From: Devosia sp. | GTDB taxonomy: Bacteria; Pseudomonadota; Alphaproteobacteria; Rhizobiales; Devosiaceae | Direction: 5' to 3' | NCBI GenBank assembly: GCA_026126125.1 | Contig: JAHCJW010000014.1 | Span: 1 to 39,404 of the forward strand | DNA length: 39,404 nucleotides | In this document: in pieces, positions 5,030 to 12,780 of the stretch | Layout of the letters: each line of letters opens with the position of its first letter | How positions within the stretch are numbered: the stretch's first letter is position 1 | Made by a program: the position numbers and the translations under genes | The notes under the pieces: generated by a model | Database searches by the model: none | Seen by the model: the letters and a program-made list of their open reading frames with translations, nothing else | Told to the model about the DNA's origin: nothing

Positions 5030-5045
5030 TGTTCCACGTGAATCC
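5030..5045 (+). other. parS-like site 1
   Basis: TGTTCCACGTGAATCC matches the bacterial parS consensus TGTTTCACGTGAAACA at 13 of 16 positions, with the CACGTG core intact. It lies in the intergenic space just before repeat copy A. Two further copies (6544-6559, 12262-12277) share almost the same sequence, including the same departure from the palindrome. Confidence 0.5.
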
Positions 5046-5160
5046 TAAAGCGCGTCGCGTTTCTCTCAGCTTCGCTCTCTGCGCTTTAGCCCTTTAGCCC
5101 TTTGTTTTTACGCATGTCTTTGTCCCGAAACCGGGGCAGCCTTCGGGAGACACGCTTTAA
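5046..5160 (+). repeat. Two-hairpin intergenic repeat, copy A
   Basis: Starts TAAAGCGCGTCGCG and ends GGGAGACACGCTTTAA. The first hairpin pairs TAAAGCGC-like with GCGCTTTA; the second is built around CCCGAAACCGG and CTTCGGG. This copy carries a short duplication (CCCTTTAG twice) and is the longest. It separates the small ORF from aceA and directly abuts parS-like site 1. Confidence 0.85.
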
Positions 5161-5212
5161 TTTCCGCCGTTCCGACGGAGCGGCGAAGCCATGACCAAAC
5201 AAGGAAACCGAA

Positions 5213-6508
5213 ATGCTCGACAAACCCCACCAGCCCGAACGCTTCCCGACGCCCGACTACGCGCCGGATCGCTGGAAAACCATCGCCCGCACCTATAGCC
5301 CGGCTGACGTCCGGCGCCTGGCAGGCTCGCTCCCCATTCGCCACAGCCTGGCGGAAAACGGCGCCCAGAAGCTCTGGCAATTGCTGCATTCGGAAGATTT
5401 CCTGCCGACGCTGGGCACGTTTACCGGCAATCAGGCGGTCCAGCAGGTGAAAGCCGGGCTCAAGGCCATCTATCTGTCCGGCTGGCAGGTGGCGGCCGAC
5501 GCCAATTCCTCGGGCAATATGTATCCCGACCAGTCGCTTTATCCGGTCGACAGCGTGCCGGCGGTGGTCAAGCGCATCAACAAGGCGCTGCAACGGGCCG
5601 ACCAGATCCAGACGATGGAAAAGGCCGACGGCACCGCCACCACCGATCTCGACTTCTTCGTGCCCATCATCGCCGATGCCGAGGCCGGCTTCGGCGGCGC
5701 GCTCAACGTGTTCGAGCTGATGAAGGCGATGATCGAGGCCGGCGCCGCCGCGGTGCATTTCGAGGACCAGCTCGCCTCGGAAAAGAAGTGCGGCCATTTG
5801 GGCGGCAAGGTTCTGGTGCCGACCAGCCAGTTCGTGCGCACGCTCAACGCGGCCCGGCTCGCCGCAGACGTGATGGGCGTGCCCACCCTGATCATGGCGC
5901 GGACGGACGCGGAAGCGGCGCGGCTCATCACCTCGGACATCGACGATTACGACAAGCCCTTCGTCACCGGCGAGCGCACGGCGGAAGGTTTTTACCGGCT
6001 CAAGGGCGGCATCGACTGCGCCATCGCCCGTGGCCTGGCCTATGCGCCCTATGCCGATCTCATCTGGTGCGAAACCTCGACGCCGGACCTGGCCGAGGCG
6101 CGCAAATTCGCCGAGGCGATCCGCAAGGAGCACCCCGAGCAGATGCTGGCCTATAATTGCTCGCCCAGCTTCAACTGGGCCAAGCATATGGACGAGGCGG
6201 CGATGGCGCAGTTCCAGCGCGAGCTGGGGGCCATGGGCTACAAATACCAGTTCATCACGCTGGCTGGCTTCCATAATCTGAGCCTCACCACGTTCGAACT
6301 GGCGCGCAGCTACAAGGAACGCGGCATGGCGGGCTATTCGCAGCTGCAACAGGCCGAGTTCGCCGCCGAAAAGCACGGCTTTTCCGCCGTGCGCCACCAG
6401 CGCGAAGTGGGCACCAGCTATTTCGACGCCGTGTCGCTGACGGTCAGCGAAGGTCAGAGCGCCACCACCGCCATGGCGGAATCAACGGAAACGGCGCAGT
6501 TCCACTGA
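5213..6508 (+). CDS. aceA: Isocitrate lyase
   Basis: A 431-aa cytoplasmic enzyme that cleaves isocitrate to glyoxylate and succinate, the first step of the glyoxylate shunt used for growth on acetate and fatty acids. The catalytic loop [10 protein letters not shown] is at residues 191-200 with Cys193; the Mg/substrate segment [14 protein letters not shown] (154-162) and the C-terminal NCSPSFNW are present. Length matches the shorter proteobacterial form. Start ATG 5213 follows AAGGAAACCGA. A strong intrinsic terminator follows. The divergent ScfR-type regulator probably controls it. Confidence 0.97.
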
Positions 6509-6516
6509 CGCCAGGA

Positions 6517-6543
6517 GGGGAGGGCAAGGCTCTCCCCTTTTTT
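6517..6543 (+). terminator. Rho-independent terminator of aceA
   Basis: GGGGAG (6517-6522) pairs with CTCCCC across a short GC-rich loop and is followed by seven T residues. It starts 9 bp after the aceA stop codon. Confidence 0.85.
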
Positions 6544-10529: not shown

Positions 10530-10567
10530 CCGCAAATCTCAAAGTCTAGCACTTATGAGATTTGCGG
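10530..10567. promoter_or_regulatory. 12-bp perfect inverted repeat between gshB and marC
   Basis: CCGCAAATCTCA (10530-10541) pairs exactly with TGAGATTTGCGG (10556-10567) around 14 nt, and the interior AAGT/ACTT extends the stem with one bulge. On the transcribed strand no U-run follows, so it is not a typical intrinsic terminator. It lies 9 bp upstream of the marC start and could be an operator or an mRNA processing hairpin. Confidence 0.6.
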
Positions 10568-10595
10568 AAAAAGGCCAAGAGCCTCGATCAGGCCC

Positions 10596-11540
10596 TCAGG
10601 CCCGGCGCTTCTCGATGGCCTCCCAGATGAGGACGGCGATGTCGGGGCCGCCAAAACGCTTGATCTCGCGAATGCCGGTTGGGGAGGTGACGTTGATCTC
10701 GGTGAGGTAGTCGCCGATGACGTCGATGCCGACAAAGATCATGTCCCGCGCCTTGAGCGCCGGGGCGATGGCGGCGCAGATTTCGCGCTCGCGCTCGGTC
10801 AGTTCGGACAATTCGGGGCGGCCGCCGACATGCATGTTGGAGCGCGCCTCGCCCTCGGCGGGAATGCGGTTGAGCCCGGCCACCGGCTCGCCATCGATGA
10901 TGATGATGCGCTTGTCGCCCTTGCGCACGTCGGGCAGATATTTCTGCACCATGAAGGGCTCGCGAAAACTCTGCTCGAACAGCTCGATCAGCGAATTGAG
11001 ATTGTGGTCGCCCTCCTGGATGAAGAAGACGCCGGCCCCGCCATTGCCGTAGAGCGGCTTGACGATGATATTGCCATGCTCCCGGCGGAAGGCATGAATT
11101 TCGGCCCGGTCGCGCGTCACCAGGGTGGGCGGCATCAGCGCGGGGAAATCGGTGACGAGGATTTTTTCGGGGGCGTTGCGCACGGCGGCGGGCGGATTGA
11201 CTACCAGCGTCTTGGGGTGCAGGCGCTCCAGAATATGGGTGATGGTGATATAGTTCATGTCGAAGGGCGGGTCCTGACGCATCAGGACGACATCCTGGGT
11301 CGACAGATCGACCCGACGCGCCTCGCCGAGGCTGAAATGCTGGCCCTTTTCGGCGTCAATGACGGTGATAGGCTGGGCGAGCGCCGTCACCATATTGTCG
11401 CGCAGGGCCAGGGTGTCGGCGGTGTAGTGCAGCAGCTCGTGACCGCGTTGCTGCGCTTCGAGCATCATGGCGAAGGTCGAGTCGCCGCGCGGATTGATGG
11501 TGGAGACGTGGTCCATCTGGACGGCGACTTTAAGCGACAT
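10596..11540 (-). CDS. gshB: Glutathione synthetase
   Basis: A 314-aa ATP-grasp enzyme joining gamma-glutamylcysteine and glycine to make glutathione in the cytoplasm. Features: the N-terminal [21 protein letters not shown], the MRQDPPFDM substrate loop, the ATP-grasp lysine in [16 protein letters not shown], and the metal-site [12 protein letters not shown] near the C-terminus. Length is that of the prokaryotic enzyme. It follows yraN closely (9 bp between the gshB ATG and the yraN stop) in an rsmI-yraN-gshB array. Confidence 0.97.
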
Positions 11541-11549
11541 GTCGAACCC

Positions 11550-11930
11550 TTAGCTGTCGAAAGCATTGATGAGATGGCGTGGCCAGCGGCCCGGCGCAAG
11601 GAAAATTACGTCGAATCGGCAGGTCTTTTGCGCTTCGGCGGGGTGGCGGGACAGCCAATGCGCGGCGGCCCGGGCGATGCGCGCCTGGTTCACTGCCTCA
11701 AGCGCGGTGGTTTCGTCGCGGCCGGCGGCGCGGGTCTTGACCTCGACAAAGACGAGGGTGCCGAAGCGTTCGGCGACGAGGTCGATCTCGCCGACCGGGG
11801 TTTTGTAGCGGCGATGGCGAATGGAATAGAGCTTTGCCGCCAGGAAAAGGGCCGCCAGCGCCTCGCCGCGCTGCCCGTCGCGTTCGGATTTTCTTCTGTT
11901 ATTCCCTGGGCTTGAGGGCGAGCGCGGCAT
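11550..11930 (-). CDS. yraN: YraN family (UPF0102) putative endonuclease-like protein
   Basis: A 126-aa protein with the Holliday-junction-resolvase-like fold signature: GEIDLVA followed by LVFVEVKTR, a PD-(D/E)xK-type core. Biochemical role is not established for the family. Start ATG 11930 (MPRSPSSPGNNRRK) has AAGG 9 bp upstream and gives the usual length; the ATG three codons earlier lacks proper spacing. It overlaps the 3' end of rsmI by 32 bp, indicating translational coupling. Confidence 0.88.
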   Translation of the reverse strand: MPRSPSSPGNNRRKSERDGQRGEALAALFLAAKLYSIRHRRYKTPVGEIDLVAERFGTLVFVEVKTRAAGRDETTALEAVNQARIARAAAHWLSRHPAEAQKTCRFDVIFLAPGRWPRHLINAFDS

Positions 11931-12780
11931 CGTAGACATCCTTGCGCTTGAGGCCGAACCTGGCCGCGATCTCATCGACGGCGCCGCGCATGGGCTGGTC
12001 CCGCATGGCGATGACGAGGGCCGCCTGCCAATCCTCGGCCGATGGCGCGGCGGGTTCGGCCGCCCCGGCGACGGCGATCACCGCTTCGCCTTTGGTGTCC
12101 TCCCCGGCAAAGCGCGCGGCAAGATCGGAAAGCGGGCCGCGGAAGGTGCGCTCGAAACGTTTGGTCAATTCGAGCGAGACGCTGGCCGGGCGGTCGCCGA
12201 AACTCTCGGCCATGGCGGCGAGGGTGTCGGCAAGGCGGCGGGGCGATTCGTAGAACACCAGTGTTTCACGTGAATCTTTCAGCTTTGCCAAGGCGTTAGC
12301 GCGGGCGCCGGCCTTGTTGGGCAGAAAGCCGTGAAAGGCGAAGGCGTCGGTGGGCAGGCCGGCGACCACGAGGGCGGAGAGCAGGGCCGAGGCGCCGGGA
12401 ATGGGAAAAACCGGCAGATTGCCTTCGGCAAGAGCGCGGATCAGCGGAAAGCCGGGGTCGGACAGCAGCGGCGTGCCGGCATCGGAAATCAGCGCGACGG
12501 CCTCGCCATTGGCGATGCGCGCGACGATCTCCTCGGCGCGGGCGCGCTCGTTATGGTCATGTAAGGATTGGCGTTTTCCCTTGATGCCGTAGTGGTCGAG
12601 CAGGCGCGCCGAGGTGCGGGTATCCTCGCAGAGCACCAGGCTCGCGGCGGCCAGCGTCTCGAGGGCGCGCAGGGTGATGTCGCGCAGATTGCCGATGGGT
12701 GTCGAGACGACATAGAGGCCGGGGCCAAGGGCAGGGGCGGGAAACGGCATGCCGGCGATAAAATATTGAGGTGACGTCAC
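11899..12780 (-). CDS. rsmI: 16S rRNA (cytidine(1402)-2'-O)-methyltransferase
   Basis: A 293-aa SAM-dependent tetrapyrrole-methylase-fold enzyme that methylates C1402 in the ribosomal P-site. Motifs: LYVVSTPIGNLRDITLRAL, CEDTRTSARLL, ALISDAGTPLLSDPG and FYESPRRL. The start is taken as GTG 12780 because the SPQYFIAG...LGPGLYVV stretch before the ATG at 12750 resembles the N-terminus of rhizobial orthologues, although no Shine-Dalgarno is visible. The GTG is inside a 10-bp palindrome GTGACGTCAC (12771-12780). A parS-like site lies within the coding sequence. Confidence 0.94.
   Translation of the reverse strand: MTSPQYFIAGMPFPAPALGPGLYVVSTPIGNLRDITLRALETLAAASLVLCEDTRTSARLLDHYGIKGKRQSLHDHNERARAEEIVARIANGEAVALISDAGTPLLSDPGFPLIRALAEGNLPVFPIPGASALLSALVVAGLPTDAFAFHGFLPNKAGARANALAKLKDSRETLVFYESPRRLADTLAAMAESFGDRPASVSLELTKRFERTFRGPLSDLAARFAGEDTKGEAVIAVAGAAEPAAPSAEDWQAALVIAMRDQPMRGAVDEIAARFGLKRKDVYDAALALKPRE
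12262..12277 (+). other. parS-like site 3, inside rsmI
   Basis: TGTTTCACGTGAATCT matches TGTTTCACGTGAAACA at 14 of 16 positions. It is inside rsmI, where on the minus strand it encodes DSRET, so coding constraint may explain part of the match. Confidence 0.45.

What the first reader, a model, noticed from the sequence alone, without database searches (positions are those of the whole stretch)
5030..12277. Three parS-like sites within 7.3 kb
TGTTCCACGTGAATCC (5030), GGATTCACGTGAAACA (6544, reverse) and TGTTTCACGTGAATCT (12262) share 13-14 of 16 bases with parS. In one orientation they read [GA]GATTCACGTG[GA]AACA, so all three share the same departure from the palindrome. Three nearly identical 15-mers in 39 kb are very unlikely by chance. 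Clustered parS sites usually lie near the replication origin, so this may be an origin-proximal segment with a lineage-specific parS.
Basis: partly seen in the sequence, partly recalled or inferred. Interest (0 to 1): 0.8.

Follow-up and report, generated by a model that had tools for sequence, protein, structure and literature searches.

The report
Centromere sites carrying a methylation tag
These short sequences are part of the chromosome-segregation centromere beside the replication origin of a Devosia bacterium, and most of them carry in exactly one half the recognition site of the cell-cycle DNA methylase CcrM, which could let the centromere sense whether it has just been copied.

Summary
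The three sites are real and, by comparison, are chromosomal parS sites. In two single-contig Devosia chromosomes every strict match lies in one 58-67 kb array (13 of 13, 9 of 9). The array contains the maf|hemE gap (presumed origin) and parAB; orthologues of the window's sites lie 41-51 kb from that gap.

The unexpected part is the shared asymmetry. The odd half, GATTCAC, begins with a GANTC site of CcrM, which this genome encodes. In 56 parB loci, 221 sites pair GATTCAC with a canonical half, 81 are canonical/canonical, and 0 have two GATTCAC halves. In an order-wide sample the asymmetric form is in 72 of 149 genomes, the double form in 0. On a 51-locus tree the GANTC half changes mostly at the free N, its partner half at another base. 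That contrast is seen within Devosia's family; outside it the sample shows no cis/trans difference. I infer selection to keep one CcrM site inside parS, perhaps coupling ParB loading to replication. Methylation and ParB binding are untested. Searches of open papers found no such sequence.

The parts
5030..5045 (-). parS site 1, GTTCC half + GATTC (GANTC) half; intergenic, upstream of aceA; sites at the same place in G027, G021 and G034 (none found there in G026)
6544..6559 (+). parS site 2, GATTC half + GTTTC half; intergenic between aceA and the nudix/comM genes; orthologues in G027, G026, G021 and G034, probably in G060
12262..12277 (-). parS site 3, GATTC half + GTTTC half, inside the rsmI coding region; orthologues in G027, G026, G021 and G034; in G060 a canonical/canonical site lies at the edge of the rsmI match
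5040..5044 (.). GANTC (CcrM) site inside parS site 1 (GAATC on the + strand)
   Evidence: read from the sequence
6545..6549 (.). GANTC (CcrM) site inside parS site 2 (GATTC on the + strand)
   Evidence: read from the sequence
12272..12276 (.). GANTC (CcrM) site inside parS site 3 (GAATC on the + strand)
   Evidence: read from the sequence
5213..6508 (+). isocitrate lyase gene (aceA), between sites 1 and 2; context only
   Evidence: NF011645 746.5 bits
11899..12780 (-). rsmI, host gene of site 3
   Evidence: TIGR00096 238.8 bits

Best explanation
The three sites are chromosomal parS: loading sites for the CTP-dependent clamp ParB, forming one flank of a ~60-100 kb centromere array around the replication origin. 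That step is well supported by comparison. In Devosia, and less densely in about half of the sampled order, most or some parS sites have one canonical half (GTTYCAC) and one half GATTCAC whose first five bases are a CcrM methylation site (GANTC). I propose that this half is kept because of the methylation site. Before initiation both strands of parS would be adenine-methylated; fork passage would leave the sister centromeres hemimethylated until CcrM returns late in the cycle. The extra N6-methyl groups would lie in the major groove where ParB's recognition helix reads the half-site and would change how ParB or a methyl reader (such as GcrA) loads; or bound ParB would shield the site from CcrM and leave a local mark. 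One canonical half keeps ParB binding, so the GANTC can sit in only one half. Shown: sites, array, conservation, asymmetry, GANTC-shaped constraint in Devosia's family, CcrM gene. Inferred: ParB binding, methylation in vivo, effect on loading.
For: Array and origin: all strict sites of two complete chromosomes in one cluster that contains dnaQ-aroE-maf|hemE-hemJ-rho-mnmE-mnmG-rsmG-parA-parB; the maf|hemE gap has 6 GANTC in 393 bp against 1.06/kb in 400 kb sampled elsewhere. Conservation: the window's sites sit at the same places in relatives. Asymmetry: 221 GATTC/canonical, 81 canonical/canonical, 0 double in 56 loci; about 40 doubles would be expected if halves were independent (my arithmetic). 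A further 12 sites pair a GATTC half with a non-canonical half. Order-wide: 191 GATTC/canonical sites (summed), 273 canonical (summed plus one missed row), 0 double against 19.7 expected (computed with 272). GANTC shape: parsimony on 51 loci gives 1,1,4,1,1,0,0 changes at positions 1-7 of the GANTC half and 0,2,1,8,0,0,0 in its partner half; positions 3 against 4: p 0.023; with the coding slot left out 0,0,3,0,1,0,0 against 0,2,0,8,0,0,0, p 0.006. In the six genomes of Devosia's family in the order sample, T4->C is in 0 of 45 GANTC halves and 6 of 45 partner halves (p 0.026). Order-wide GATCC occurs once against 191 GATTC, while GTTCC makes up 21 of 150 canonical halves listed (75 of 273 sites). 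CcrM: RAMA domain in 149 of 149 genomes of the order and a 377-aa ORF with a DPPYNL motif in the own genome. ParB recognition segments of a genome with 3 asymmetric sites (G466) and one with none (G532), same family, are nearly identical, so a change of ParB specificity does not explain the variant there.
Against: No methylation, binding or genetic data. Counts share ancestry; the tree test rests on few events (5 against 9 at the two key positions). Outside Devosia's family the cis/trans contrast is absent: 1 GATCC against 146 GATTC, and GTTCC in 1 of 105 listed partner halves (p 1.0), so there the rarity of GATCC is explained as well by a limit on total mismatches. 77 of 149 genomes of the order have CcrM but no such sites, so the feature is dispensable and cannot be tied to CcrM by presence or absence. 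At the slot just 3' of parB, 7 of 43 sites are GATCC and only 1 is GATTC, so ParB there seems to tolerate A2 without GANTC. One G060 site has neither half as GANTC (GATCCACGTGGAAC). Sites in rsmI and rsmG are also under coding constraint.
Confidence: 0.55

Rival explanations
1. Ordinary degenerate parS: ParB of this order binds GATTCAC slightly less well than GTTTCAC, one weak half is tolerated, two are not; GANTC is a by-product.
For: Explains the absence of double GATTC and, outside Devosia's family, the rarity of any further change in either half. ParB of this order mostly has a basic residue at the position that I equate with 184 of Caulobacter ParB (28 K, 22 R in 50 Devosia-like loci; Caulobacter and two other-order genomes have A), and a lysine there was reported to contact the backbone at base 2 in Noc (passages of PMC7383237; numbering match inferred). 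Both halves with A2 occur once in the fetched arrays (GATTCACGTGGATC).
Against: Tolerance predicts drift back to the stronger canonical half. At five array slots, present in 23-47 loci each, 199 of 206 variant halves are GATTCAC, 4 GACTCAC and none GTTTCAC. In Devosia's family T4->C should be as common in cis as in trans; it is not (0 of 45 against 6 of 45). The basic residue also occurs in genomes without such sites, and one genome with 3 such sites has N there.
Confidence: 0.34
2. The asymmetry sets direction: an oriented parS makes the ParB clamp or SMC load or leave in one direction.
For: Orientation at each array position is largely conserved across the genus.
Against: In G027 the GATTC half faces the presumed origin at 9 of 12 sites (binomial p 0.15); neighbouring sites point both ways. 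It does not explain why the variant is GANTC.
Confidence: 0.07
3. The sites belong to another regulator with a CACGTG core, unrelated to segregation.
For: Sites 1 and 2 flank aceA, near a RamB-like regulator.
Against: Site 3 is inside rsmI; the same motif lies at conserved places in rsmG and beside mnmE, mnmG, parB and rho; all strict sites of two complete chromosomes are in one array around the presumed origin; in 8 of 12 stretches from other families and orders, chosen for paired canonical sites, canonical parS lies on both sides of mnmG.
Confidence: 0.02

Closest known systems
Chromosomal parS sites of Alphaproteobacteria (Caulobacter, Agrobacterium)
   Same: Same consensus and CACGTG core, clustered at parAB and origin; A. 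tumefaciens parS1 consensus is stated to be identical to that of B. subtilis (passage of PMC9239152). Canonical GTTYCACGTGRAAC is in 341 of 387 class genomes.
   Different: In Devosia most sites are GATTC/GTTTC instead of palindromic; 54 of 61 sampled genomes hold 8-15 matches.
CcrM/GANTC control of repABC replicons
   Same: Links CcrM to partition: in A. tumefaciens a GANTC near predicted parS sites was suggested to be needed for partitioning; plasmid pAMI4 has GANTC clusters near its 3parS (passages of PMC11514494 and PMC9040568).
   Different: In those passages the GANTC lie near plasmid-type parS of RepB; nothing is said of a GANTC inside a chromosomal parS half.
GANTC at the Caulobacter parS locus
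   Same: Methylation of GANTC at the parS locus was assayed and did not change when CcrM was stabilised or when foreign methylases were expressed (passages of PMC5172544).
   Different: The passages do not say that GANTC lies inside a ParB half-site or affects ParB.
Dam/GATC-based replication sensing (SeqA/oriC of E. coli; recalled, no call)
   Same: Hemimethylation as a mark of newly copied origin DNA.
   Different: Acts on origin sequestration, not on an embedded centromere site.

Membership tests
chromosomal parS | 16-mer within 3 mismatches of TGTTTCACGTGAAACA, intact CACGTG core | tested here: met
chromosomal parS | inverted repeat; imperfect copies allowed | tested here: met
   each site has one GTTYCAC half; the other half departs at position 2; perfect palindromy itself is not met
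chromosomal parS | clustered near origin and parAB | tested here: met
   in the fragmented own genome by synteny only
chromosomal parS | cognate chromosomal ParB with parS-type recognition helix | tested here: met
   TIGR00180 188.5 bits on C252; GKSRSHVANT identical to Caulobacter ParB of 6t1f; equivalents of R173 and G201 present (numbering offset inferred)
chromosomal parS | bound by ParB in vivo | not testable with these tools
   needs ChIP-seq
CcrM target site | GANTC sequence | tested here: met
CcrM target site | CcrM encoded in the genome | tested here: met
CcrM target site | methylated in the cell | not testable with these tools
   needs SMRT or Nanopore signal data

The most novel reading that the evidence does not exclude
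Devosia and many other members of its order have centromeres with a built-in replication sensor: parS sites whose one half is a CcrM methylation site, so that ParB loading, or the mark ParB leaves, depends on whether the origin region has just been copied.
Probability: 0.37. Interest if true: 0.85.

Novelty: new variant of a known kind. Interest (0 to 1): 0.6.

Why it matters
If the embedded CcrM site controls ParB, this would be a direct, sequence-encoded link between DNA replication, the methylation clock and chromosome segregation. It can be tested with short oligonucleotides and by replacing single bases at natural sites. It would also give a simple motif (GATTCACGTGRAAC) for locating origins and centromeres in Devosia and many other genomes of this order.

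Tried and rejected
Rejected: chance; a non-ParB regulator; a ParB specificity switch as cause; origin-directed orientation of the GATTC half (9 of 12, p 0.15); tying the variant to presence or absence of CcrM (domain in 149 of 149 genomes, so no contrast).

Led nowhere or weak: GC skew in G027 and G026 shows no sign change at the array. GANTC within 20 bp of canonical sites in 12 stretches from other families: 7 of 21, against a local background of 3.2/kb, suggestive only. The first stretches fetched for ParB of other families held mnmG or mnmE instead; corrected. Livny 2007 (parS survey) is not held.

For that reason I lowered the best explanation from 0.60 to 0.55 and the novel case from 0.40 to 0.37, and raised the first rival from 0.28 to 0.34.

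Rows dropped or capped: one search used 51 loci; left out of 56 were L146 and L153 (before the table) and L150, L151, L154. The close pair near mnmG of L129 lay outside the slot limits. Slots were scored only where a site with up to 4 (pair near mnmG) or 3 (other slots) mismatches was present. In one search, 148 of 149 rows were typed (one row with 1 site missed): 272 there, 273 with it. Its 'outside Devosiaceae' test and one line used 144 canonical halves where 132 is right by my count; I do not use those p values. Listings are capped: matches of 6 of 61 genomes, 150 of 191 sites and 75 of 273 sites were seen.
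Full report
Observation. All three are exact matches to GATTCACGTGRAACA. The genome that holds the window (3.91 Mb, 302 contigs) has five exact copies: three in the window (contig C46), one on C73 and one on C287. C252 has a one-mismatch copy and a palindromic GTTTCACGTGAAAC next to parB. Sites 1 and 2 flank isocitrate lyase; site 3 lies inside rsmI and reads GAT TCA CGT GAA ACA (D-S-R-E-T) in frame.

The organism is most likely a Devosia. A genus sample of 61 genomes (own included) has GWTYCACGTGRAWC in 61 of 61, 2-15 matches each (8 or more in 54), while the reversed control pattern occurs in 1 of 61.

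The sites are one array at the origin. Matches of six genomes were listed. In five all strict sites lie in one stretch of one contig: G027 13 of 13 in 67 kb, G026 9 of 9 in 58 kb (both single-contig chromosomes), G021 13 of 13 in 79 kb, G060 13 of 13 in 103 kb, G034 12 of 12 in 94 kb. The sixth, G059, is fragmented and has its 15 sites on 5 contigs. In G027 twenty 20-kb samples from the rest of the chromosome have no 14-mer within 2 mismatches of GTTTCACGTGAAAC; in G026 two of 20 remote samples had one each. The G027 array contains dnaQ-aroE-maf, a 393-bp gap, then hemE-hemJ-rho-mnmE-mnmG-rsmG-parA-parB; dnaQ to rsmG were named by NCBIfam, parA (no family found at 1e-30) from its sequence and place, parB by similarity to the G000 gene. 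The gap holds 6 GANTC and one TTATGCACA. That the alphaproteobacterial origin lies next to hemE is recalled knowledge. Relative to this gap the orthologues of the window's sites lie at -51, -48 and -41 kb. dnaA is 92-297 kb from the nearest site in G021, G027, G034 and G026; in G060 the hit is in pieces, and in the own genome dnaA is on another contig.

GC skew. In G052 (3.78 Mb, one contig) the sampled skew is positive from 0 to 1.5 Mb apart from one sample, negative from 1.7 to 3.2 Mb and near zero at 3.42 and 3.58 Mb; its asymmetric sites lie at 3.57-3.65 Mb. The stretch from 3.60 to 3.78 Mb was not sampled. In G027 all sampled windows are positive and in G026 37 of 45 are negative, with no clear change of sign at the array. 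So skew supports the origin in one of three complete chromosomes; I did not find out why the other two differ.

What is odd about these parS sites. In a class-wide sample the canonical form GTTYCACGTGRAAC is in 341 of 387 genomes, the asymmetric form GATTCACGTGRAAC in 14 of 387. Within the order the asymmetric form is in 72 of 149 genomes and 42 of 81 genera, with most sites per genome in Devosia (6-12 in three genomes), then in some relatives and in family f189 (up to 7). In 56 parB loci there are 221 sites with one GATTCAC and one GTTYCAC half, 81 with two canonical halves, 0 with two GATTCAC halves, and 12 in which GATTCAC is paired with some other half. Position and orientation of each site are largely conserved across the genus. 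In 8 of 12 stretches from other families and orders, chosen for two canonical sites about 2 kb apart, canonical parS lies on both sides of mnmG; in Devosia the mnmE-mnmG gap carries a pair of asymmetric sites.

The odd half is a CcrM site. GATTC is GANTC. If GANTC itself is what is kept, then changes at N should be tolerated, changes at A, T and C not, and the neighbouring canonical half should follow the usual parS pattern. On a tree of 51 loci the GANTC halves at five slots show 1,1,4,1,1,0,0 changes at positions 1-7 and their partner halves 0,2,1,8,0,0,0; two canonical slots show 0,5,0,8,1,0,0. Positions 3 and 4 differ with p 0.023 against partner halves; with the slot inside rsmG left out the counts are 0,0,3,0,1,0,0 and 0,2,0,8,0,0,0, p 0.006. 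Of 206 variant halves 199 are GATTCAC, 4 GACTCAC (still GANTC), 3 others, none GTTTCAC. In the order sample GATCC, which breaks GANTC, occurs once against 191 GATTC sites, while GTTCC makes up 21 of 150 canonical halves listed (p 2e-7, not corrected for relatedness).

Results against this. The better control for GATCC is the partner half of the same sites. In Devosia's family T4->C is in 0 of 45 GANTC halves and 6 of 45 partner halves (p 0.026), but outside it the figures are 1 of 147 and 1 of 105 (p 1.0). Outside the family, therefore, a simple limit on total mismatches explains the rarity of GATCC as well. Just 3' of parB, 7 of 43 sites are GATCC and 1 is GATTC, so ParB probably tolerates A at position 2 without GANTC there. 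77 of 149 genomes of the order have no asymmetric site although all 149 have the CcrM domain.

CcrM and ParB. The RAMA domain of CcrM is in the own genome, G026 and G027 and in 149 of 149 sampled genomes of the order; among 14 control genomes only Caulobacter has it. The own copy is a 377-aa ORF with a DPPYNL motif. The own ParB is most similar in the PDB to Caulobacter ParB (6t1f), with identical GKSRSHVANT; that this entry is ParB bound to parS is recalled. ParB of G466 (3 asymmetric sites) and G532 (none), same family, are almost identical over the recognition segment. A lysine or arginine where Caulobacter has alanine is found in genomes with and without the variant, and one genome with 3 asymmetric sites has asparagine there, so it does not explain the variant, although lysines there strengthen backbone contacts in Noc (passages of PMC7383237).

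Mechanism. Shown here: real sites, one conserved array around the presumed origin, one GANTC per asymmetric site, a constraint shaped like GANTC within Devosia's family, and the CcrM gene. Inferred: ParB binds them; CcrM methylates them; after fork passage they are hemimethylated until CcrM returns (the cell-cycle facts are from Caulobacter, passages of PMC8116508); and this changes ParB loading, recruits a methyl reader, or is the trace of ParB shielding. I give 0.55 to the statement as a whole, about 0.95 to 'these are parS', and 0.37 to a functional effect of methylation on ParB.

Literature. No paper in the open library holds the four variant 14-mers, the 15-mer with parS, or Devosia with parS and ParB. 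Three further searches combined parS with GANTC, CcrM or methylation and one with hemimethylated; from their listings I looked at passages of PMC11514494, PMC9040568, PMC5172544, PMC3973325 and PMC8116508, none of which describes a GANTC inside a chromosomal parS half. Other listed papers were seen as listings only. Subscription journals and preprints are not covered.

Noticed in passing
G027 (L059-L098 with L020-L024) and G026 (L025-L029, L158-L197): GC skew keeps one sign nearly all round two single-contig Devosia chromosomes (all sampled windows + in G027, 37 of 45 - in G026), the same sign relative to the parAB strand, while G052 shows the usual two-arm pattern.
   Followed up: partly
L218-L229, canonical parS sites beside mnmG in other families: 7 of 21 canonical sites have a GANTC within 20 bp, more than the local background of 3.2/kb would suggest; other families may place a CcrM site beside rather than inside parS.
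   Followed up: partly
G027:C1:1834662, G026:C1:2616956, G021:C2:432878, G060:C1:509325, G034:C61:816872: A further conserved array member with a GATTC half and a GCTTCAC half; it keeps the GANTC half while its other half is not canonical.
   Followed up: no
G000:C90:11917-13530: A second ParB homologue (301-aa open frame, below the family cut-off) with a parS-like GATCCACGCGAAACA 1.3 kb away; possibly a plasmid-type partition locus.
   Followed up: no
window 3139-4551 (-): RamB-like acetate regulator (378 bits, below the curated cut-off of 700) divergent from aceA; parS site 1 lies between the two genes.
   Followed up: no
L129, Candidatus Devosia symbiotica: Array partly eroded in this symbiont: fewer intact sites and degraded halves such as ATTTCAC and AATTCAC.
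   Followed up: no
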